Origin: Bacillota bacterium
GTDB taxonomy: Bacteria > Sysuimicrobiota > Sysuimicrobiia > Sysuimicrobiales > Segetimicrobiaceae
Reading direction: 5' to 3'
Assembly (NCBI GenBank): GCA_021324295.1
Contig: JAJPJJ010000030.1
Location: forward strand, 1 to 46,681
DNA length: 46,681 nucleotides
Made by a program: the position numbers and the translations under genes. The notes below the pieces were generated by a model that was not told the DNA's origin, ran no database searches, and saw only the letters and a program-made list of their open reading frames with translations. Below are positions 24,319-36,120 of the stretch, one piece after another; positions within the stretch are counted from its first letter, which is position 1, and the number at the start of each line of letters is the position of its first letter.

Positions 24319-25602
24319 ATGCGGCAGCGCGTAAAGCGACGGGAGCTTCTCAAGCTGACCGGCGGCGCAGCGGCGCTCGCCGCCGCAGGGTGGCGCGCCG
24401 GCCCGGCGGGGGCCCAGGCGGAGGAGATCAAGATCGGCGCGCTCTATCCGCTCTCGGGCTCGCTCGCGCGCATCGGCGCGGACATGAAGAAGGCCGTCGA
24501 CATGGCCGCCGAGATCGTCAACACCGCGCGCCCGGACCTCGCGCCGCTTGTGCTCGCGGCCACCGCGGGACTGCCCCGCCTCGGCGGGCGGAAGATCCGC
24601 CTCGTCTGGGCGGACGCGAAGGACCCGGCGACCGCGCGGGCGGAGGCGGAGCGGCTCATCGATCAGGAGAAGGTCGTAGCCCTGATGGGCTGCTATGCGA
24701 GCGCGATCACGGCCACCGCTAGCCTGGCCGCGGAGACCCGGGGGATCCCCTTCCTGAACCCCGAGTCCTCCTCGCCCACCCTCACCGAGCGCGGCTTCAA
24801 GTGGTTCTTCCGCACCGGCCCGCACGATCGGACCTTCACCGAGATGTTCTACCGGATGTTCGCCGACCTCAAGAAGAAAGGCCGGCGCATCGCGAAGTTC
24901 GCGATCCTCTCCGAGAACACGGAGTTCGGGGCCACGGCGGCCAAGGTGGAGGAGGAGCTGGGCAAGCAGCAAGGGTACCAGATGGTCGCGCGCGAGATGT
25001 ACACCTCGCCGCCCGCGAGCCTCGACGCCGAGCTGACGCGCATCCGGGCCGCTGCCCCGGATGTGCTCATCGCCAACGGCTACCTGATCGACGCCGTGAC
25101 GACGATCAAGACGCTAAAGACGATGGGCTACGCCCCGCCCGGGATCGTCGTGCAGGACTCCGGGTACGTCGTGCCCGACTACCTGAAGGAGACGGGGAAG
25201 GACGGGTACTACGTGATCAGCCGGGCGTCGTGGGCGCTCGGCCTCGGTGTCCGCAAGCCGCTCGTCCGGAAGGTCAACGAGCTGTACCGCAGCCGGTACA
25301 ACGAGGACATGGACGAGACGAACGCCCGGAGCTTCACCGGGTTGCTCGTGCTGGCCAACGCGATCAACCTGGGCGGCGGGACGAGCCCGACGCAGATCCT
25401 CCAGGGGCTCCTGCGCACCGATATCCCCGGCTCGGAGACGATCATGCCGTGGCAGGGGATCAAGTTCGACAAGAACGGCCAGAACGTGCACGCGAGCGGG
25501 GTCATGGTGCAGATCCTCGACGGCAAGTACAAAGTCGTCTGGCCGTTCGATCTCGCGGAGACGCCGATCGTCTGGCCGGCGCCGCCCTGGAACAAGCGCT
25601 GA
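24319..25602 (+). CDS. Liv-type ABC transporter substrate-binding protein (Tat signal)
   Basis: The 427-residue protein is a type I periplasmic-binding-protein-like receptor of the branched-chain amino acid/amide class. A twin-arginine signal (KRRELLKLTGG) and hydrophobic stretch at residues 6-33 predict export in folded form. The mature part begins EEIKIGALYPLSGSLA and contains the usual MGCYASAITAT ligand-loop region. It heads a Liv-type importer operon (permease, permease-ATPase fusion, ATPase) followed by hydantoinase-family genes, so its ligand may be an amide, hydantoin or 5-oxoproline rather than leucine. A G-rich GGGGGAGGGGG lies before ATG 24319. The preceding 197 bases show no gene. 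Confidence 0.93.
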   Translation: MRQRVKRRELLKLTGGAAALAAAGWRAGPAGAQAEEIKIGALYPLSGSLARIGADMKKAVDMAAEIVNTARPDLAPLVLAATAGLPRLGGRKIRLVWADAKDPATARAEAERLIDQEKVVALMGCYASAITATASLAAETRGIPFLNPESSSPTLTERGFKWFFRTGPHDRTFTEMFYRMFADLKKKGRRIAKFAILSENTEFGATAAKVEEELGKQQGYQMVAREMYTSPPASLDAELTRIRAAAPDVLIANGYLIDAVTTIKTLKTMGYAPPGIVVQDSGYVVPDYLKETGKDGYYVISRASWALGLGVRKPLVRKVNELYRSRYNEDMDETNARSFTGLLVLANAINLGGGTSPTQILQGLLRTDIPGSETIMPWQGIKFDKNGQNVHASGVMVQILDGKYKVVWPFDLAETPIVWPAPPWNKR

Positions 25603-25683
25603 CCGGGCCGCCGGCCTCGGCGGGGCGGCGGCGTGGCCTGCGAGGCCGCCCACCGGCCCGGCCGGCCTCCGCGGAGGCGCCCC

Positions 25684-26550
25684 ATGGAGCTTCTCCTCAC
25701 CGCCTCGGTGGACGGCCTCGTCATGGGCCTCGTCTACGCCCTGGTGTCTTTGGGGCTGGGCCTGATCTGGGGCGTCATGGACGTGATCAACTTCGCCCAC
25801 GCCGAGTACATGATGCTGGCGATGTACGCGACGTATTTCGCCGGGCGGTGGCTGCACCTCGACCCGCTCGGCGCGCTGCCGGTCGTCGTGGCGCTCGCGT
25901 TCGGGGCCGGAGTCGCGACGTACGTGGTGCTGATCCGCCGCATCGCGGGGGCGCCGGCGGTCACGCAGATCTTCGCGACGTTCGGCCTGCTGTTCTTCCT
26001 CCGCTACCTCGCGTTCGCGGTGTTCGGCCCGAACTTCCGGGGGATCTCCTGGCCGCTGGCGAGCGGCGCCATCGTGCTGGCAGGCGTGCCGGTCAGCGCG
26101 GCCAAGGCGATCGCCGGAGCGGCGGCCGTCGTCACCTTCGCGGTCCTCCACGTCTTCCTGCAGTACACGAAGGCCGGGAAGGCCCTGCAGGCGACGGCCC
26201 AGAGCCCCACCGCGGCGCTCGCGCTCGGGATCGAGGTGGAGCGGATGTACGCGCTGGCGTGGGGGCTGAGCATCGCCACCGCGGCGGTCGGCGGCGTCTT
26301 CCTCCTGCCCTTCTACCAGGTCAGCCCGACCGTGGGAGATGCGTTCCTCCTGATCACCTTCGCGAGCGTGGTGCTGGGCGGGTTCGGCAGCCTCTGGGGG
26401 CCGCTCGTGGGAGGCGTCGCGATCGGCTTGATCGAGGGCGTCGCCGGCACGATGCTCGCGCCGACGTTCAAGCTGCTCTTCGTGTTTGCGGTGTTTCTCC
26501 TCGTGCTCTTCATCCGGCCGGTCGGGATCCTCGGCGGGCAGCAGACGTGA
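25684..26550 (+). CDS. livH: Branched-chain amino acid/amide ABC permease, LivH type
   Basis: A 288-residue inner-membrane permease with about eight helices and the LivH hallmarks GLVMGLVYALVSLGLGL, VINFAHAEYMMLAMYA at the N-terminus and VLGGFGSLWGPLVGG near residue 240. It pairs with the LivM part of the next gene to form the channel. It starts 81 bases after the binding-protein gene, and its TGA overlaps the next ATG by one base. Confidence 0.93.
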   Translation: MELLLTASVDGLVMGLVYALVSLGLGLIWGVMDVINFAHAEYMMLAMYATYFAGRWLHLDPLGALPVVVALAFGAGVATYVVLIRRIAGAPAVTQIFATFGLLFFLRYLAFAVFGPNFRGISWPLASGAIVLAGVPVSAAKAIAGAAAVVTFAVLHVFLQYTKAGKALQATAQSPTAALALGIEVERMYALAWGLSIATAAVGGVFLLPFYQVSPTVGDAFLLITFASVVLGGFGSLWGPLVGGVAIGLIEGVAGTMLAPTFKLLFVFAVFLLVLFIRPVGILGGQQT

Positions 26551-28313
26551 TGGCGACGGTCCTCACCGCCGCGGTGTGGGCCGCGCTCCTGCTCGTCCCG
26601 GCTGTCGTCCGCAACGCCTACTTCCTCAACGGGATGATCCTCGTCTTCATCTACGGCACCGCCGCCCAGGCCTGGAACCTCCTCGGTGGGTACGGCGGCC
26701 AGCTCTCGTTCGGCCACGCCGTGTTCTTCGGGATCGGGGCGTACGCCAGCACGCTGCTGCTCGCGCAGGCCGGGCTGAGCCCGTGGATCGGGATGTGGGC
26801 CGGCGCGGCCGTCGCGGCGGGGGTCTCGCTGCTCATCGGCTACCCGACGTTTCGGCTCCGCCGCCACTACTTCGCGCTGGCGACGCTCGCGCTCGCGGAG
26901 ATCGTGCGGATCGTGTTCCTCAACTGGCCCCTCGTCGGGGCCGCGGTGGGGATGTACCTCCCCGTGCGTCTGATGAACCAATCCTGGGCGATGATCTGGA
27001 ACACCAAGGGGCCCTACTACCTGCTGGCCCTCGCGCTCTTTGCGCTGGCGTGCGCCCTCGTGCGGCTCACCGACCGCGCCCGCCTCGGCGTGTACCTGCG
27101 GACGATCGACGAGGACGAGGACGCGGCCCAGGCGCTCGGCATTCCGGGGCGCCGGTACAAGCTGCTGGCGATGGGGCTGAGCGCGGCCCTGACCGCGCTC
27201 GCCGGCACCCTCTTTGCCCAGTACGTCCTCTACATCGACCCCTCTACGGTCCTGGACCCGTCGCGCTCGGTGCTGTTCGCGATCATGGCGCTGCTGGGTG
27301 GCCGCGGCACGGTCGTCGGCCCCGCGCTCGGGGCGGGGTTCCTGACGCTGCTCTCGCAGTATGGCGGGGGCACCCTGGGCGGGCTGGGGCGCGGGTACGA
27401 CTACGTCCTCTACGGCCTGGCCATCATGCTGGTCGCGGTGTACGAGCCGCGGGGCCTGGTAGGGCTCGTGGAGCGGCTCCGGCGCTCCCGCGGCGCCCCC
27501 GCCGCCGGCCTGGGGCCGTCGCCGGTCGCGTCGCCCGCGACCGATCCCAGACCGGGGGGCGAGCGGCGGCCGCTGCTCGTGGTAGAGCGGCTCTCGAAGC
27601 GGTTCGGCGGCCTGGAGGCGCTGCGGGGTGTCGCGCTCGATGTCCGGCGGGGCGAGATCGTCGGGGTGCTCGGGCCGAACGGCGCCGGCAAGTCGACGCT
27701 GTTTGACTGCGTGACCGGGTTCCTGCGGCCGTCGGAAGGCGCGGTGCGCCTCGCCGGCGAGGGCGGCGAGCGCTCCCTCACCGGCCGCCCGCCGTTCTGG
27801 ATCGCCCAGCAGGGGCTGAGCCGGACCTTCCAGTTGATCCGCGTCTTCCCGGGCCTCACCGTGCTCGAGAACATGCTCGCCGGCCAGGAGCACCGGGGCG
27901 AGCCGCTGCTCCAGGCCTTCCGCCCCAGCCCGCCCGAGGTGTACGCGCGCGCGCTCGAGCTGCTCCGGCTCGTCGGGCTCGAGGCGGCGCGCGACCTCCG
28001 CGCCGGCGCTCTCTCGTACGGGCAGCAGAAGTTGCTCGCGCTCGCGATGGCGCTGGTGCGCCGGCCCCGCCTCGTGCTGCTGGACGAACCGATGGCGGGC
28101 GTAAACCCCACGGTGGTCGAGCGCCTCCGGCAGCACATTCGCGCCCAGCACGCCGAGGGTGTGGCGTTCCTCATCATCGAGCACAACATCGAGGTGCTGA
28201 TGGAGCTGGCCGAGCGGTTGTACTTCCTGGCCGAGGGGCGCGTCGTCGCCGAGGGGCCGCCCGAGGCGATCCAGCGCAACGAGGAGGTCCTCGGCCTCTA
28301 CTATGGACGGTGA
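26550..28313 (+). CDS. LivM-LivG fusion: ABC permease fused to ATPase
   Basis: One 587-residue open frame holds two proteins that are normally separate. Residues 1 to about 310 are a LivM permease (AAQAWNLLGGYGGQLSFGHA near 38-57, ALGIPGRRYKL near 190). A Pro/Ala-rich linker (about 315-345) follows, then a LivG ATPase with Walker A GPNGAGKST at about 375-383, signature LSYGQQ and Walker B LVLLDEP. No stop codon or frameshift interrupts the join. Such fusions occur naturally in some Liv-type systems and fix one ATPase to one permease. ATG 26550 overlaps the livH stop; GTG 26547 is also in frame. It overlaps livF by 11 bases. Confidence 0.93.
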   Translation: MATVLTAAVWAALLLVPAVVRNAYFLNGMILVFIYGTAAQAWNLLGGYGGQLSFGHAVFFGIGAYASTLLLAQAGLSPWIGMWAGAAVAAGVSLLIGYPTFRLRRHYFALATLALAEIVRIVFLNWPLVGAAVGMYLPVRLMNQSWAMIWNTKGPYYLLALALFALACALVRLTDRARLGVYLRTIDEDEDAAQALGIPGRRYKLLAMGLSAALTALAGTLFAQYVLYIDPSTVLDPSRSVLFAIMALLGGRGTVVGPALGAGFLTLLSQYGGGTLGGLGRGYDYVLYGLAIMLVAVYEPRGLVGLVERLRRSRGAPAAGLGPSPVASPATDPRPGGERRPLLVVERLSKRFGGLEALRGVALDVRRGEIVGVLGPNGAGKSTLFDCVTGFLRPSEGAVRLAGEGGERSLTGRPPFWIAQQGLSRTFQLIRVFPGLTVLENMLAGQEHRGEPLLQAFRPSPPEVYARALELLRLVGLEAARDLRAGALSYGQQKLLALAMALVRRPRLVLLDEPMAGVNPTVVERLRQHIRAQHAEGVAFLIIEHNIEVLMELAERLYFLAEGRVVAEGPPEAIQRNEEVLGLYYGR

Positions 28314-29043
28314 GGGCCCCCGCGGCGACGGGGCGCTGCTCGAGGTGGCGGACCTCCACGCGGGCTACGGGCAGCAGGAGGTCCTGCGCGGCGTCTCGCT
28401 TGCGGTGCGCCCCGCGGAGACGGTGTGTGTGATCGGACCGAACGGCGCCGGGAAATCAACGCTGCTCCGGGCGATCTTCGGGTTCCTCCGCCCGTCGCGC
28501 GGGGCGGTGACGTTCGAGGGCGCCTCCCTCGTGGGCCGCCGGCCCCCGGAGATCCTGCGGCGGGGGATCGCGTATGTCCCGCAGGGCGCGAGCGTGCTCC
28601 CCAACCTCAGCGTCGAGGACAACCTGATGCTCGCCGCCTACATCCGGCGGGACCGCGAGGTCGGGCGCGATATCGCGCGCCTGCTGGCTCTCTTCCCCGC
28701 GCTGGGCGCCCGCCGGCGGATGCGCGCCCGCACGCTGAGCGGCGGGGAGCGGCGGATGCTGGAGATCGCCCGCGTCCTCCTGCTGCGCCCGCGCCTCGTG
28801 CTGCTGGACGAGCCGACGATCGGCCTCGCCGGCGCGGCGACGGCGTTCATCTACGACCTGATCCGGGAGTTTCGCGGACAGGGCGTCGCGGTGCTGCTCG
28901 TCGAACAGAATGCACGCACGGCGCTGCGCAACAGCGATCGCGCGTACGTGCTGGACCAGGGCCGCGTCCGCTTCGAGGGCAGCGGCGAGGAGATCCTCGC
29001 CCACCCGGAGGTGCGGCAGGCGTACCTGGGGGGGCGCGCCTGA
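28303..29043 (+). CDS. livF: ABC transporter ATPase, LivF type
   Basis: The 246-residue second ATPase of the importer. Walker A GPNGAGKST lies at about residues 45-53, the signature LSGGERRMLEIAR in the middle, Walker B LVLLDEPTIGL next, and the switch histidine is replaced by glutamine (LLVEQNA), as in LivF proteins generally. It would form a heterodimer with the LivG half of the preceding fusion. It starts inside the 3' end of that gene. Confidence 0.93.
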   Translation: MDGEGPRGDGALLEVADLHAGYGQQEVLRGVSLAVRPAETVCVIGPNGAGKSTLLRAIFGFLRPSRGAVTFEGASLVGRRPPEILRRGIAYVPQGASVLPNLSVEDNLMLAAYIRRDREVGRDIARLLALFPALGARRRMRARTLSGGERRMLEIARVLLLRPRLVLLDEPTIGLAGAATAFIYDLIREFRGQGVAVLLVEQNARTALRNSDRAYVLDQGRVRFEGSGEEILAHPEVRQAYLGGRA

Positions 29044-29119
29044 GCGCGGTCCGGCACGCCTCGGACACGACGGCGCGCGGCGCGCGCCGCCCGTGCACGC
29101 TCCGCGACGGAGGATGGGC

Positions 29120-31189
29120 ATGCGTGAGGCCTGCTACCGGATCGGGGTCGACGTCGGCGGCACGTTCACCGATCTGATCGCCGTTTCCGAGGAGGGGGGC
29201 GCGCTGCTGCCGGTCAAGGTGCCGAGCACCCCGCGGGCGCCGGCGGACGGGGTGCTCGACGCGCTGGGCCGTGCCTTCGCCGCGCGCCCGGGGCGGGCGA
29301 GTTACGTCGTGCACGCGTCGACGATCGGCACGAACCTCTTCCTCGGTCAGATCGGGCTCGACCTGCCCCGGACGGCCCTCCTGACGACCGAGGGGTTCCG
29401 GGACGTCCTCGAGATCGGCCGCCAGCGCCGAGCGGAGCTGTACAACCTGTTCTACCGCAGGCCGCGGCCGCTCGTGCCCCGCCGGCTGCGCATCGGGATC
29501 CCGGAGCGGATCGACGCCGGCGGGGGCGTCGTCCAGCCGCTCGAGGAGGCGCGCGTCCGGGAGGCCGCCTCCCGCCTGCGGGAGGCGGGGGTCGAGGCCG
29601 TCGCGATCGTGTTCCTCCACAGCTACGCGAACTCCGCGCACGAGCGGCGCGCGAGAGACATCCTCCAGGCCGCGCTGCCGGAGGCGGTGATCGTGACGTC
29701 CTCCGAGATCGACCCGGAGTACCGCGAGTACGAGCGGGCGAGCACGACGGTCGTCAACGCCCTGCTCTCGCCGGTCGTCTCGCGCTACCTGCGGGGGCTC
29801 CGCAGCCGGCTGCCGCAGGAGGCGTCCGGGGCGCCCCTCTACGCGATGCAGAGCAGCGGGGGGATCACGACGATCGAAGGCGCCGCGGCCCGGCCCGGGA
29901 CGATCATCGAGTCCGGGCCGGCCGCGGGGGTCGTCGGCGCCGCGGCGCTCGCGCGCCGCCTCGGATGCGACCGCGTGCTGAGCTTCGACATGGGCGGGAC
30001 GACGGCCAAGGCAGGCGCGATCGTGGGCGGCCGCCCGCAGGTCGTGACCGAGTACGAGGTCGGGGGGACGGTCCACGCGGGGAGGATCGTGCGGGGCAGC
30101 GGTTATCCGGTGCGCTCGCCGTTCATCGACCTCGCCGAGGTGAGCGCCGGCGGCGGCACCGTGGCGTGGGTGGAGGGGAGCGCGCTGCGGGTCGGGCCGC
30201 TCAGCGCGGGCGCCGATCCCGGGCCCGCCTGTTACGGCCGCGGCGGCGACCGGCCGACCGTGACCGACGCGCACCTCCTGCTCGGGTGGCTGTCCCCGGA
30301 GGGCCTGCTCGGCGGCCAGATGCGCCTCGCGCGCGAGGCCGCGGAGCAGGCGATGGCCGCGGTGGCGCGGCCGCTCGGGCTGGGGCTGACCGAGGCGGCC
30401 GCCGGGGTCCTCGAGATCGTGAACGCGCAGATGGCGCGCGCGCTCAGGATCGTCTCACTGGAGCGCGGTCACGATCCGCGCGAGATGGTGATGGTGGCGT
30501 TCGGCGGCGCCGGGCCGATGCACGCGGCCGCGCTCGCGGACGACCTCGGGGTGCGGGAGGTGATCGTGCCGCGCCATCCCGGCCTGTTCTCGGCGGTGGG
30601 GCTGCTCGCGGCCGACCTCCGCGCGGATCGCGTGCAGAGCGTCATGCGGCCGATCGAGGCGGTCGAGCCGGGCTGGCTGGATCGCCGGTTCCACGGGCTC
30701 GACGCGGAGGCGCAGGCGGCGGTCCGGGACGGCGACGCGCGCCGGCAGGTCGTGGTGCAGCGCGGACTGGACCTGCGCTACGTGGGGCAGTCGTACGAGC
30801 TGACCGTGCCGGCCGGCGCCGACCTCGCGATGGTCGCGGAGGCGTTCCGCGCCCGGCACGCGGACATCTACGGCTACGCGCCGGCCCGGGAGCCGATCGA
30901 GGTCGTCAACGCCCGCGTGACGGCGTTCGGCATCATGCCGCCGTTGCCGCTGTGGGAGGCCCCGTCCGCCCCGCGCGCCGCGCACGGCCCGCAGGCGCGG
31001 CGCCGCGCGTACCTCGGCGGGGAGTGGCGCGAGGTGCCGGTGCTCCGCCGGGAGGCTCTCGTTCCAGGGGACGAGGTCGCCGGCCCGGCGATCGTGGAGG
31101 AAGACGACGCCACGACCATCGTGCCCGCCGGCTGGCGGTGCGCCGCGGGCGAGGCCGGGACGCTGCGCCTGCGGCGGGCAGCCCGATGA
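29120..31189 (+). CDS. hyuA: Hydantoinase/5-oxoprolinase family subunit A
   Basis: A 689-residue ATP-dependent amidohydrolase subunit of the HyuA/OplA family. It shows the actin-like phosphate motif GVDVGGTFTDL near the N-terminus, the second motif DMGGTTAKAG at about residue 290, and AFGGAGPMHA near 460. With subunit B it hydrolyses hydantoins, N-methylhydantoin or 5-oxoproline, or carboxylates ketones in the acetone-carboxylase branch. Start ATG 29120 has GGAGG six bases upstream; ATG 29114 is in frame but touches the GGAGG. It follows livF by 76 bases and is probably in the same operon. Confidence 0.93.
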   Translation: MREACYRIGVDVGGTFTDLIAVSEEGGALLPVKVPSTPRAPADGVLDALGRAFAARPGRASYVVHASTIGTNLFLGQIGLDLPRTALLTTEGFRDVLEIGRQRRAELYNLFYRRPRPLVPRRLRIGIPERIDAGGGVVQPLEEARVREAASRLREAGVEAVAIVFLHSYANSAHERRARDILQAALPEAVIVTSSEIDPEYREYERASTTVVNALLSPVVSRYLRGLRSRLPQEASGAPLYAMQSSGGITTIEGAAARPGTIIESGPAAGVVGAAALARRLGCDRVLSFDMGGTTAKAGAIVGGRPQVVTEYEVGGTVHAGRIVRGSGYPVRSPFIDLAEVSAGGGTVAWVEGSALRVGPLSAGADPGPACYGRGGDRPTVTDAHLLLGWLSPEGLLGGQMRLAREAAEQAMAAVARPLGLGLTEAAAGVLEIVNAQMARALRIVSLERGHDPREMVMVAFGGAGPMHAAALADDLGVREVIVPRHPGLFSAVGLLAADLRADRVQSVMRPIEAVEPGWLDRRFHGLDAEAQAAVRDGDARRQVVVQRGLDLRYVGQSYELTVPAGADLAMVAEAFRARHADIYGYAPAREPIEVVNARVTAFGIMPPLPLWEAPSAPRAAHGPQARRRAYLGGEWREVPVLRREALVPGDEVAGPAIVEEDDATTIVPAGWRCAAGEAGTLRLRRAAR

Positions 31190-31259
31190 GGCCGCAGCGG
31201 GCGCTGCGCGCGCGGGACGCGGCCGCCGGCCGGCGGCATCCGGAGGGGAGGGCGGGGCG

Positions 31260-32888
31260 ATGAGGCCGGATCCGATCACCGTGGAGGTCATCCGGAACGC
31301 GATGATCTACGCAGCGGAAGAGATGGGGCTCGCGCTGCGGAACGCGAGCTACTCCCCGAACATCAAGGAGCGCATGGACCACTCCTGCGCCCTGTTCGAC
31401 GCGACGGGGCGCCTGATCGCCCAGGCCGAGCACATCCCCGCCCACCTGGGGTCGATGCCGCTCGGGGTGCGGAACACCGTGGCGCTGCTGCGCGAGCGGG
31501 ACCAGCGTCCCGGCGACGTGTTCATCGTCAACGACCCCTACATCGCCGGCACGCACCTGAACGACATCATGATCATCCGGCCGGTGTGGTGGCAGGGGAC
31601 GATCCTGGGGTACAGCGCCAACAAGGCGCACCACGTAGACGTCGGCGGCCGCACGCCCGGCAGCCTCAGCAGCGACGCGCGCGAGCTCGTCGAGGAGGGC
31701 GTGATGGTCCCGCTGCTCTCGATCGTCCGCGGCGGCGATGAGGTCCCGGAGACGGTCGAGATGATCCTGGCCAACGTGCGGTCGCCGGAGACCACGCGCG
31801 GCGACCTCCGGGCGCAGATCGCCGCCGCCTCGCTCGGCGAGCGGCGCGTCCTGGAGCTCGTCGAGCGGTATGGACCGGACCGCGTCCTGGCCGCGTGGGA
31901 CGCGATCCTCGACCAGGGAGAGGCGCAGGCGCGCCGCGCGTTCGGCACGCTGCCGCCCGGCCGGTACGCCGCGGAGGACTGTCTGGAGGACGACGCGACG
32001 CCGGGAGGGCTGGTGTGGATCCGGGCGGCGGTGACCGTGGGCGAGGCGCGCGTCCGCGTCGACTTTAGCGGGACGGATCCCCAGGTGCCGCGGCCGATCA
32101 ACGCGGTGTTCGGGGTGACGGTCGCCGGGACGGTCTACGCCCTCAAGGCGGTGTGCGACCCGTCCTCGCCGATGAACGAGGGCTGGCTGCGCCGGGTCGA
32201 GATCACTGCGCCCCCGGGTACGGTGATCAACCCGGTGCGGCCGGCGCCGGTCGGCGTGGGGAATACGGAGACCAACCAGCGGGTGGCCGATGTCATCCTC
32301 CGGGCGCTGGCGCAGGCTGTGCCGGAGCGTGTGCCGGCCGCCTCGAACGGGTCGATGAGCAACGTGACCGTCGGCGGCCTCGACGCGGCACGCGGGCGGA
32401 GCTGGACGTTCTACGAGACGATCGCCGGCGGAATGGGGGGGCGGCCCGGGCTCGACGGCGTCGACGGCATCCACTGCAACATGACCAACACGATGAACAC
32501 GCCCATCGAGGCGATCGAGCAGGAGCTGCCGGTGCGCTTCCTGGCCTACGAGTTCCGGCCGGGGACGGGCGGCGCGGGGCGGTGGCGGGGCGGGTGCGGC
32601 GTCCGCCGAGCCTGGACGCTGCTCGCGGAGGAGGCGACGGTATCGATCTTGACCGAGCGCACGCGCGTGGCGCCGTGGGGCCTCGCGGGCGGGCAGCCGG
32701 GGGCGCTGGCACGCCACCTCGTGCGCCGCGCCGGCGGCGCGGAGGAGGTCCTGCCGCCCAAGCACACGACGCGGCTGCGCCGGGGAGATGCGCTCGTGAT
32801 GCAGACGCCGGGCGGCGGCGGGTACGGGCCTCCGGAGGAGCGGGATCCTGAGGCGGCGCGGCAGGACGCAGCGGACGGCCTGCTCTGA
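31260..32888 (+). CDS. hyuB: Hydantoinase/5-oxoprolinase family subunit B
   Basis: The 542-residue partner of HyuA. Family marks include ERMDHSCALFDATGRLIAQA near residue 38, the segment NDPYIAGTHLNDI near 93, NKAHHVDVGG near 120, TNQRVADVI near 340 and TPGGGGYG near the C-terminus. Histidines and aspartates in these segments are candidate metal ligands. A G-rich ribosome site lies before ATG 31260, 70 bases after hyuA. Together with the ABC importer and the DUF1445 gene it suggests uptake and ATP-driven ring opening of a cyclic amide. Confidence 0.93.
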   Translation: MRPDPITVEVIRNAMIYAAEEMGLALRNASYSPNIKERMDHSCALFDATGRLIAQAEHIPAHLGSMPLGVRNTVALLRERDQRPGDVFIVNDPYIAGTHLNDIMIIRPVWWQGTILGYSANKAHHVDVGGRTPGSLSSDARELVEEGVMVPLLSIVRGGDEVPETVEMILANVRSPETTRGDLRAQIAAASLGERRVLELVERYGPDRVLAAWDAILDQGEAQARRAFGTLPPGRYAAEDCLEDDATPGGLVWIRAAVTVGEARVRVDFSGTDPQVPRPINAVFGVTVAGTVYALKAVCDPSSPMNEGWLRRVEITAPPGTVINPVRPAPVGVGNTETNQRVADVILRALAQAVPERVPAASNGSMSNVTVGGLDAARGRSWTFYETIAGGMGGRPGLDGVDGIHCNMTNTMNTPIEAIEQELPVRFLAYEFRPGTGGAGRWRGGCGVRRAWTLLAEEATVSILTERTRVAPWGLAGGQPGALARHLVRRAGGAEEVLPPKHTTRLRRGDALVMQTPGGGGYGPPEERDPEAARQDAADGLL

Positions 32889-33213: not shown

Positions 33214-33242
33214 TTGACAGGCGGCCCGTTCTGTGCTGAGAT
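33214..33242 (+). promoter_or_regulatory. Promoter of the riboswitch-controlled gene
   Basis: A perfect -35 TTGACA (33214-33219), a 17-base spacer and a -10-like TGAGAT (33237-33242) lie on the plus strand. The start site near 33249 is about 45 bases before the c-di-GMP riboswitch. The 325 bases between hyuB and this promoter show no gene. Confidence 0.65.
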
Positions 33243-33289
33243 GGACGCGAGCGGGGCGCTTGCAGTGTTACGCCGGACCGCATATCGCT

Positions 33290-33380
33290 CCTCCGTAGGG
33301 GCAAACCCAGGGAGATCTGGGGACGCAAAGCCACGGGACAGGCCAGCGCTGCTGGCAAGTCGGCCGGGTTGCCAGGCGGG
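33290..33380 (+). ncRNA. Cyclic-di-GMP-I (GEMM-I) riboswitch
   Basis: The sequence matches the GEMM-I aptamer in order. GGGGCAAACC (33298-33307) forms the 5' side of the outer stem. A short stem CCAGG/TCTGG is capped by a GAGA (GNRA) tetraloop. The hallmark GGACGCAAAGCCACGGG follows, then a second variable stem (GCCAGCGCTGCTGGC), and GGCCGGGTTGCC (33362-33373) closes the outer stem. The GNRA loop and its receptor, and the G-rich binding core, correspond to those in the Vibrio Vc2 aptamer. A terminator hairpin follows and then a secreted-protein gene, so c-di-GMP probably controls read-through. Confidence 0.9.
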
Positions 33381-33391
33381 GCGTGGAGCCA

Positions 33392-33425
33392 GGACCTCCC
33401 GTGGCACGCGGGAGGTTCCTTGTCT
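33392..33425 (+). terminator. Rho-independent terminator downstream of the riboswitch
   Basis: The arms ACCTCCCG (33394-33401) and CGGGAGGT (33409-33416) form a GC-rich hairpin, extended by an outer GG/CC, followed by the moderately T-rich TTCCTTGTCT. It lies about 20 bases after the riboswitch and 90 before the gene, the usual position for a transcription-attenuating expression platform. Confidence 0.65.
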
Positions 33426-33511
33426 CTGTATCCACCCTCCGTCGATGCCGCCCTCGCGCAGCATCCAGAGTCACGCAGCGAGACGCTGTACTCGGAAGGG
33501 AGGTGTCTCGA

Positions 33512-35047
33512 ATGAGACGAGGGGGTTCGGCTCGGATCCTACGGCGGCTGGCTCTGGCCGCCTCCGCCTTCCTGATCGCCGGCGTCCCCTCAGCGTTCGC
33601 CGGCGCAGTCCTCACGTTGGGGTCGCCCGTCACGGTTTCCGGTCCCACACCGTTCACGCCCGGATGCAACGGCGCGCCGCAGACCGGCACGAACTTCCCC
33701 AATGCGGAGGTGGAGCCGTGGGTCGACATCAACCCGGTCAACGCGAGCAACATCGTGGCCGTCTGGCAGCAGGACCGGTGGTCGAACGGCGGCTCGAACG
33801 GCCTCCTCGCGGGCGTCTCGTTCGACGGTGGCGCCACCTGGACCAGGACGGCGGCGCCATTCGCCCGCTGTGAGGGCGGGACTGCGGCTAACGGCGGCAA
33901 CTTCGAGCGCGCAAGCGACCCATGGGTGAGCTTCGGCCCTTCCGGCAGCGTGTACCAGGCTTCGCTCTCCTTCAACAACTCCAATTTCACCAGCGCGGTG
34001 CTGGTGAGCAAGTCGACCGACGGCGGCCTGCACTGGGGCAACCCGAAGACCGTGATCCTGGACACGGCCCCCACCGTCTTCAACGACAAGGAGTCGATCA
34101 CCGCGGACCCCGGCAACGCGAACCTGGTCTACGTCGTGTGGGACCGGCTCGTCGTCCCGACGGCGCGCGCCCGGGGCGTGTCGTTCGAGCACGCCATCGG
34201 CTTTCGCGGGCCGGCGTGGTTCTCGCGCAGCACGGACGGGGGCGATACGTGGGCGGCGCCGCGGATCATCTTCGATCCCGGCGAGATCAACCAGACGATC
34301 GGGAATCAGATCCTCGTCCTCCCCAACGGGACCCTCATCGACGGCTTCAACCTGATCTTCAACGTCAGGGGCCTGCGGCAGCGGGGCTTCAACGTCGCGC
34401 TCATCCGCTCGACCGACAAGGGTGTGACATGGTCGCGCCCGATCATCGTGAGCAAGCTGCTCTCGCGGCCCGTCACCGACCCCAATACCGGTCAGGCGGT
34501 TCGGACCGGCGATATCCTGCCGGCGTTCGCGGTGGACCGCAGCAGCGGCACCCTCTACGCCGTCTGGATGGACACCCGGTTCAGCGGCGGAGTCAAGGAC
34601 GACATCGCGTTCTCGATGTCCACCGACGGGGGCCTCACGTGGACGGCGCCGGTGAAGATCAACAAGACGCCCGGGAACGCGCCCGCGTTCACCGCCTCCG
34701 TGAAGGCCGGGCCCGACGGCCGGATCGCCGTGACATACTACGACTTCCGCTCCCTGGCCGCGGGGAACACCACCACACTGCCGACCGACTACTGGATGGT
34801 GAACTGCCTCGTCAACTGCACCGCCCCCGCGAGCTGGACGGAGCAGCACCTCGCCGGTCCGTTCGATATGATGCTCGCGCCGAACGCCGGGGGCTTCTTC
34901 GTGGGCGACTACGAGGGCCTGGGCGCCGCAGCCTCCGCCGTGTTGACATTGACGGACGTATTCCAGCCCGTTTTCGCCGCGGCGGTCTCGCCGGCGGATC
35001 CGACCGACGTCTTCACGCTGGCGGCGACGACGCCAGAGGTGAGATGA
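33512..35047 (+). CDS. Secreted Asp-box (BNR/sialidase-like) beta-propeller protein
   Basis: The 511-residue protein has a signal peptide (LALAASAFLIAGVPSAFA). Five Asp-box repeats of the S-x-D-x-G-x-x-W type follow: SFDGGATW, STDGGLHW, STDGGDTW, STDKGVTW and STDGGLTW. These are the turns of sialidase-like six-bladed propellers. I could not confirm a catalytic arginine triad, so it may be a glycoside hydrolase or a non-enzymatic surface propeller. Cysteine pairs in the mature part fit an exported protein. A strong AAGGGAGGTG precedes ATG 33512. The leader carries a c-di-GMP-I riboswitch, which ties the protein to the motile/sessile switch, for example to matrix or adhesion; that role is an inference. 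Confidence 0.85.
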   Translation: MRRGGSARILRRLALAASAFLIAGVPSAFAGAVLTLGSPVTVSGPTPFTPGCNGAPQTGTNFPNAEVEPWVDINPVNASNIVAVWQQDRWSNGGSNGLLAGVSFDGGATWTRTAAPFARCEGGTAANGGNFERASDPWVSFGPSGSVYQASLSFNNSNFTSAVLVSKSTDGGLHWGNPKTVILDTAPTVFNDKESITADPGNANLVYVVWDRLVVPTARARGVSFEHAIGFRGPAWFSRSTDGGDTWAAPRIIFDPGEINQTIGNQILVLPNGTLIDGFNLIFNVRGLRQRGFNVALIRSTDKGVTWSRPIIVSKLLSRPVTDPNTGQAVRTGDILPAFAVDRSSGTLYAVWMDTRFSGGVKDDIAFSMSTDGGLTWTAPVKINKTPGNAPAFTASVKAGPDGRIAVTYYDFRSLAAGNTTTLPTDYWMVNCLVNCTAPASWTEQHLAGPFDMMLAPNAGGFFVGDYEGLGAAASAVLTLTDVFQPVFAAAVSPADPTDVFTLAATTPEVR

Positions 35048-35292: not shown

Positions 35293-36120
35293 TCAGGTGC
35301 CGGGGCGGATCTGGCGGTACACTGCCCACACCGCGCTCACATACCACCGTGTTTCGGCGTAGGGAGGGATGCCGCGGTACCGCCGAACGGCGCCGTCGCC
35401 CGCGTTGTATGCCGCGAGCGCAAGCCGCCAGTCGCGGAACTCCTGGTAGTACGCCCGCAGCATCGTCGCGGTCCCGACGAGGTTGCCCCAGGGATCGCGC
35501 GCGTCCACGCCGGCCGCGCGGGCGGTCCGCGGCATCAACTGCCCGAGGCCGGTGGCGCCGGCCCAGCTCGTCACGGCGTGATCGAAGCGGCTCTCGATGT
35601 ACACGACCGCCGCGAGCAGCCACGGGTCGACCCCTTCCCGGCGGGCCGCGGTCACGACGTGCTCGCCGATCCACGCGGCCTGCGCCAGCGTGAGCCGCGG
35701 ATTCGACGCCCGGGCCAGCGCCGCGATCGCCCTCGGCGTGCCCGCAACGGCCGCCGGCGGCCCCTGGCGGAACACGCTCAGCCGGCGTAACCAGCCCTTC
35801 GTGACTCGCTCCTGGAAGAACGAGTGCGGGCGCCGGAGCCCTTCGCGGAAGTAGGCCTCGGCGTCCTGGATCCGGCCGGCGGCGGTCGCGGCGATACCCG
35901 CCCAGATCGCGGGGAGCGCCGACTGCGAGCGCTCCTGCGCCAGCCGGGCAAACACAGCGAGCGCCCGCGCCGGCGCGCCGGCGCGGTATGCGTCGATGCC
36001 GTCCTGGAGGGACGCTGGGGCGCTCGGGCCCTCCCCGGCCCAGGCCGCGATCGCGCCGAGGCCCAGGAGCGCGGCGAGCGTGGCGGCTACGCCCCGAGAG
36101 GCCCGGCGGATGCTGCGCAC
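35293..36120 (-). CDS. Lytic transglycosylase (SLT domain) with TPR-like N-terminus
   Basis: The 275-residue product has a signal peptide (GVAATLAALLGLGAIAAWAG). A helical repeat region (about 36-120, AYRAGAPARALAVFARLAQ, AEAYFREGL) follows, resembling a TPR pair, and then a C-terminal SLT domain. The catalytic Glu176 lies in VYIESRFDHAV, with GATGLGQLMPRTA and ALAAYNAGDGAV following as expected. It cleaves the glycan strand of peptidoglycan outside the membrane. It starts at GTG 36120 with no strong ribosome site. It converges with the Asp-box gene; the 245 bases between them show no supported gene. The 265 bases upstream also hold nothing I recognise. Confidence 0.88.
   Translation of the reverse strand: MRSIRRASRGVAATLAALLGLGAIAAWAGEGPSAPASLQDGIDAYRAGAPARALAVFARLAQERSQSALPAIWAGIAATAAGRIQDAEAYFREGLRRPHSFFQERVTKGWLRRLSVFRQGPPAAVAGTPRAIAALARASNPRLTLAQAAWIGEHVVTAARREGVDPWLLAAVVYIESRFDHAVTSWAGATGLGQLMPRTARAAGVDARDPWGNLVGTATMLRAYYQEFRDWRLALAAYNAGDGAVRRYRGIPPYAETRWYVSAVWAVYRQIRPGT

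What the first reader, a model, noticed from the sequence alone, without database searches (positions are those of the whole stretch)
33214..33511. Complete c-di-GMP-I riboswitch unit controlling a secreted Asp-box protein
A promoter, a GEMM-I aptamer with GNRA loop and GGACGCAAAGCC core, a terminator hairpin and a strong ribosome site stand in order before a secreted five-Asp-box propeller. GEMM-I riboswitches usually control motility, matrix or surface genes, so a sialidase-like propeller of unknown activity becomes a candidate c-di-GMP output in this lineage.
Basis: partly seen in the sequence, partly recalled or inferred. Interest (0 to 1): 0.75.

Follow-up and report, generated by a model that had tools for sequence, protein, structure and literature searches.

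The report
c-di-GMP riboswitch before secreted propeller gene
A standard RNA switch that senses the bacterial signal c-di-GMP sits in front of a gene for a secreted propeller-shaped protein; it is one of 13 such switches in this genome, so the part is known but its target is a new output of the signal.

Summary
Window 33290-33376 matches Rfam RF01051 (c-di-GMP-I / GEMM-I) over its full length (64.3 bits, gathering cut-off 35, E=2e-10), with G20/A47-type contacts intact. Around it stand, in order, a -35 box TTGACA (33214), a terminator-like hairpin (33392-33418), a Shine-Dalgarno (33499-33503) and a secreted 511-aa, five-Asp-box protein (33512-35047). The genome holds 13 GEMM-I aptamers; all 43 held genomes of its order have at least one. 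The only close ortholog in the order (78% identity, another genus) also has a GEMM-I directly upstream; no locus of 80 homologs from other phyla shows one. The aptamer belongs to a sub-group otherwise found before pilT and a sigma factor. Most likely c-di-GMP closes P1 and lets the hairpin form, lowering expression (OFF); the direction is inferred and could be the reverse. The protein is a predicted beta-propeller distantly like sialidases, without their FRIP motif. New member of a known kind. Wider surprise: the genome has no PilZ or EAL match, so riboswitches (plus MshEN) may be its main c-di-GMP effectors.

The parts
33214..33242 (+). sigma-70-type promoter: -35 TTGACA 33214-33219, 17 nt, weak -10 TGAGAT 33237-33242
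   Evidence: read directly; TTGACA at the matching place before the G003 ortholog; 29 of 60 family aptamers have such a promoter vs 2.4 expected
33287..33295 (+). 5' strand of aptamer helix P1 (GCUCCUCCG); 33287-33292 alternatively pairs with 33297-33302 (AGGGGC) in the ligand-free MFE
33290..33376 (+). c-di-GMP-I (GEMM-I) aptamer, long-P3 subtype, G at the Vc2 position 20 equivalent (33300), A47-type core intact
   Evidence: RF01051 64.3 bits, E=2e-10; own model R1 72.4 bits
33373..33389 (+). 3' strand of P1 and linker (CAGGCGGGGCGUGGAGC); can pair with the 5' leader (P1) or with the hairpin's 5' arm (antiterminator candidate)
   Evidence: inference
33392..33430 (+). expression platform: terminator-like hairpin 33392-33418 with weak U-rich tail
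33499..33503 (+). Shine-Dalgarno GGAGG, 8 nt before the start codon
   Evidence: read directly
33512..35047 (+). secreted five-Asp-box (BNR) beta-propeller protein, 511 aa
   Evidence: Pfam BNR_2 7e-14, BNR 2.8e-8; AlphaFold pLDDT 90.1; Foldseek to sialidases

Best explanation
A cis-acting c-di-GMP-I riboswitch transcribed from its own sigma-70 promoter controls a single secreted BNR propeller gene. Shown by sequence: aptamer, hairpin, RBS and gene in order on one strand; conservation of the aptamer-gene pair in a second genus; the ligand-contact base G20. Inferred: when c-di-GMP is high it binds, holds P1 (33287-33295 with 33373-33382) closed, and so leaves the hairpin 33392-33418 free to form and stop transcription (OFF). 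When c-di-GMP is low, the P1 3' strand and linker (33377-33389) pair with the hairpin's 5' arm (33396-33401) and transcription reads through. The propeller would then be made in the low-c-di-GMP state, together with PilT, whose riboswitch has the same layout. In the G003 ortholog the same hairpin lies right against the start codon and its 3' arm holds the only G-rich RBS candidate, so there it could block translation instead.
For: RF01051 hit; 13 aptamers in the genome; 43 of 43 held genomes of the order positive; ortholog at 78% aa identity with GEMM-I at G003:C157:832-918 and the ORF beginning some 50 nt after it; DNA 88.8% identical over 33286-33406 including the hairpin's 5' arm; G at position 20 in 59 of 61 family aptamers including this one; c-di-GMP makers and breakers present: 7 GGDEF, 7 HD_5 (HD-GYP-type) matches. 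P1 3' strand and hairpin do not overlap in the window, the G003 ortholog and three of four pilT loci (3 nt in the fourth), unlike the loci where P1 and terminator 5' arm share bases.
Against: P1 in the window has a C.A mismatch where the ortholog has UCCG:CGGA, and the ligand-free minimum-energy fold pairs the leader with the binding-site bases instead. The antiterminator is not favoured at equilibrium at any transcript length tested, so it would have to act kinetically. The U-tail is weak and the hairpin count near chance. No ligand, transcript or expression data.
Confidence: 0.58

Rival explanations
1. Same riboswitch, opposite sign: c-di-GMP binding turns the propeller gene ON by disturbing the hairpin, as predicted for sister loci where the P1 3' strand is the terminator's 5' arm.
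For: Sister aptamers before the prepilin, a secreted 196-aa protein and the CRP-like regulator have P1/terminator overlaps of 9-15 nt, so ON designs are common in this genome; the unconstrained fold of the window forms the hairpin almost fully once 33418 is transcribed.
Against: In the window and ortholog P1 and hairpin do not share bases, and with P1 forced closed the window's hairpin still forms with probability 1.0.
Confidence: 0.27
2. The aptamer is a decayed copy of the pilT/sigma-factor riboswitch that came along with the gene and no longer switches.
For: P1 mismatch and competing leader hairpin; patchy gene (2 of 43 genomes); 80-90% identity to sigma, own pilT and ortholog aptamers.
Against: The binding core and P2/P3 are intact at 64 bits, and the aptamer-gene pair persists in two genera while the protein diverged to 78%.
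Confidence: 0.1
3. The natural ligand is 3',3'-cGAMP or another dinucleotide rather than c-di-GMP.
For: GEMM-Ib aptamers in Geobacter prefer cGAMP (PMC6456294, PMC8835794).
Against: The window has G at position 20; only 2 of 61 family aptamers have A there. Five of seven GGDEF domains show a canonical GG[DE]EF motif; Hypr substitutions were not examined.
Confidence: 0.05

Closest known systems
c-di-GMP-I (GEMM-I) riboswitches, Rfam RF01051
   Same: Full-length model match above the gathering score; G20/A47-type contacts; GNRA tetraloop; hairpin platform before the gene
   Different: Target gene: a secreted five-Asp-box propeller; no paper in the held library contains four of the terms c-di-GMP, riboswitch, GEMM, BNR, sialidase
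c-di-GMP-I-GGC variant, Rfam RF03167
   Same: Nine sister aptamers in this genome score best against this model
   Different: The model consensus has GACGCGAA where the window and its sisters have G-[ACG]-CGCAAA, so the A47-type base is canonical; the window itself scores best with RF01051
Bacillus thuringiensis Bc1 GEMM-I with long platform (PMC11218506)
   Same: Class I aptamer with terminator hairpin(s) well upstream of a separate RBS
   Different: Two terminators and a chemoreceptor gene (mcpE) there; one weak-tailed hairpin and a secreted propeller here
GH33 sialidases
   Same: Beta-propeller fold and Asp boxes; BNR_2 domain
   Different: TM only 0.39-0.46, 10-19% identity, no FRIP motif

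Membership tests
c-di-GMP-I riboswitch (RF01051) | Covariance-model score over the gathering threshold, full length | tested here: met
   64.3 bits vs 35, model 1-87
c-di-GMP-I riboswitch (RF01051) | Ligand-contact bases G20, A47 (Vc2 numbering; positions named in PMC11218506) | tested here: met
   G20 and A47 equivalents present by alignment; mapping of Vc2 numbers onto the alignment is from my own knowledge of Vc2
c-di-GMP-I riboswitch (RF01051) | Ligand-contact base C92 | tested here: inconclusive
   the conserved GCC near the 3' end is present but which C is C92 was not fixed by a structure alignment
c-di-GMP-I riboswitch (RF01051) | GNRA tetraloop in P2 | tested here: met
   GAGA in the alignment; the receptor in P3 was not tested separately
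c-di-GMP-I riboswitch (RF01051) | P1 helix closing the aptamer | tested here: inconclusive
   Pairs available but with a C.A mismatch and a competing hairpin; clean in the ortholog
c-di-GMP-I riboswitch (RF01051) | Binds c-di-GMP and alters expression | not testable with these tools
   needs in-line probing and transcription assays
c-di-GMP-I-GGC variant (RF03167) | G at the A47-type position | tested here: not met
   window reads GACGCAAA, not GACGCGAA
GH33 sialidase | Propeller fold with Asp boxes | tested here: met
GH33 sialidase | FRIP motif (first Arg of the triad) | tested here: not met
   no [FYW]R[IVL]P in the protein

The most novel reading that the evidence does not exclude
In this bacterial family c-di-GMP acts mainly through RNA. 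None of 12 held genomes has a PilZ match, while each has 4 to 13 GEMM-I riboswitches, with opposite-sign platforms splitting the output: prepilin and some secreted proteins switched on, and PilT, sigma factor, CAP proteins and the Asp-box propeller switched off by the same signal. The propeller is a secreted effector of the low-c-di-GMP state, recruited by copying the pilT/sigma riboswitch onto a horizontally gained gene.
Probability: 0.3. Interest if true: 0.7.

Novelty: new member of a known kind. Interest (0 to 1): 0.42.

Why it matters
It ties a widespread but functionally unknown secreted Asp-box family (homologs in Rokubacteria, Chloroflexi, Burkholderiaceae, Actinobacteria and others) to a defined signal in one lineage, which says when it is made. 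It also points to a lineage whose c-di-GMP read-out looks riboswitch-heavy, with PilZ absent in its family, which can be tested with reporters in laboratory strains.

Tried and rejected
A consensus scan found no sigma-70 promoter; the weak -10 was accepted only after the family-wide comparison. A thermodynamic model of P1, antiterminator and terminator did not show switching at equilibrium, so direction rests on layout. The GGC-variant reading was rejected because the defining base is absent. An in-frame upstream start (GTG 33383, 554 aa) was rejected: it would run through the hairpin, and a signal-peptide-like start with a good RBS lies at 33512. The organism could not be named: one order holding all close relatives (7 families, then only 'same domain'), high G+C and a soil-type pattern of homologs suggest Sysuimicrobiota (CSP1-3; PMC11604079 describes one class and one order), but this is a guess.

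Full report
Observation. cmscan of the whole window against Rfam gives one match over the gathering score: RF01051 at 33290-33376 on the + strand, 64.3 bits, full length, E=2e-10. Upstream is TTGACA at 33214 with a weak -10 at 17 nt; downstream a hairpin 33392-33418 with a weak U-rich tail, then GGAGG 8 nt before ATG 33512. The simple promoter scan reports nothing and the hairpin count alone is near chance. Both gain weight from comparison: of 60 aptamers of the family, 29 have a promoter-like pair of at least 9/12 just upstream against 2.4 expected from mononucleotide shuffles, and hairpins with U-rich tails follow many of them.

Genome context. The window's genome has 13 RF01051 matches; all 43 held genomes of the order have at least one. 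Genes after the other 12 include a T2SSE/PilT ATPase, two CAP secreted proteins, an HD-GYP-type protein with GAF, a CRP-type regulator and a prepilin with N-methylation motif, besides several predicted secreted proteins without Pfam match. Related genomes add a sigma-70 factor, GGDEF, HD-GYP with CHASE4, CAP and an M64 peptidase with FG-GAP repeats. First genes were picked by codon-position G+C, so a few may be wrong. A secreted protein behind GEMM-I is normal here. The ligand is likely made: 7 GGDEF matches and 7 HD_5 matches, no EAL.

Aptamer-gene link. Among 43 genomes of the order only the window's and G003 carry the protein at E<=1e-30. The G003 protein is 78% identical and has its own GEMM-I at 832-918, some 50 nt before its start codon. 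blastn between the window and 18.5 kb of the G003 contig aligns the gene and 33286-33406, but no neighbouring genes, as if aptamer and gene moved or persisted together. Loci of 80 homologs from other phyla contain no match at E<=0.05 to a model built from the family's aptamers (best 18.7 bits, E=0.062, inside a coding region), though some have too little upstream DNA to judge. Six of 17 of these host genomes have GEMM-I elsewhere. The link is thus, as far as held data go, particular to this family.

Origin. The window aptamer is 90% identical to the ortholog's, 80-89% to those before sigma-factor genes and 86% to the own-genome pilT one, and shares with them a long P3 arm that the other own-genome aptamers lack. 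In an approximate tree these long-P3 aptamers group together (supports moderate). Copying of a pilT/sigma riboswitch onto a gained gene is the simplest reading; it is inferred.

Mechanism. Platform layouts in the family fall in three sorts: P1 3' strand containing the Shine-Dalgarno (CCGAAGGAGG); P1 3' strand shared with the terminator 5' arm; and a terminator apart from P1. The window, the ortholog and the own-genome pilT belong to the third. By standard riboswitch logic the second is ON, and the first and third OFF with ligand. Forcing core and P1 in the window leaves the hairpin at probability 1.0 once complete. However P1 has a C.A mismatch in the window, the leader prefers pairing with the binding-site bases in the ligand-free fold, and the proposed antiterminator is never favoured at equilibrium. 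OFF is therefore a moderate-confidence inference. P1 itself is supported by UCCG:CGGA in several long-P3 loci against UUUG:CAAA in three pilT loci, compensating changes at two pairs (read by eye from the sequences).

Protein. Five Asp boxes, BNR_2 7e-14, AlphaFold mean pLDDT 90.1 on a 35-sequence alignment. Best solved structures are sialidases with E down to 5e-13 but TM 0.39-0.46 and 10-19% identity. Invariant residues across 35 homologs include D88, R89, R133, D136, R331, D354, D411 and Y467, which looks like a binding or active site, but the FRIP motif is missing. Activity unknown; probably a glycan-acting or glycan-binding propeller (inference).

Wider point. The 12 held genomes of the window's family have no PilZ match, while 22 of 31 other genomes of the order do. 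The window's genome keeps four MshEN matches. So in this family RNA may carry an unusually large share of c-di-GMP output. One loss event would explain the pattern, and other receptor types were not searched.

Noticed in passing
L023:5706-5799 (G000:C11:38205-38298): A sister aptamer has A at the G20-type position and precedes a CRP/FNR-type regulator with a cyclic-nucleotide-binding domain; a change of ligand (such as cGAMP) is possible. A second A20-type aptamer is L153:672-751.
   Followed up: partly
G000 and 11 genomes of the same family: No PilZ match in any of 12 genomes of the family while most other genomes of the order have one; the window's genome also has no EAL match.
   Followed up: partly
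L157:693-2017, L164:679-1949, L169:716-1959: Three GEMM-I aptamers within about 1.3 kb in three related genomes: one before a CAP gene and two in tandem before a secreted protein gene of unknown function.
   Followed up: partly
L016:3014-5314: The own-genome pilT riboswitch is followed by pilT, then a sigma-factor-like ORF and a MerR-like ORF (by eye); in several relatives the sigma factor is the first gene after the aptamer.
   Followed up: partly
L018:3-1448: A 482-aa predicted secreted protein behind another GEMM-I has no Pfam match; repeats look propeller-like by eye.
   Followed up: no
window 35293-36120: A lytic transglycosylase (SLT) gene lies on the opposite strand just after the propeller gene.
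   Followed up: no
window 24801-32885: Branched-chain amino-acid ABC transporter genes and a hydantoinase B/oxoprolinase subunit gene lie upstream of the riboswitch.
   Followed up: no
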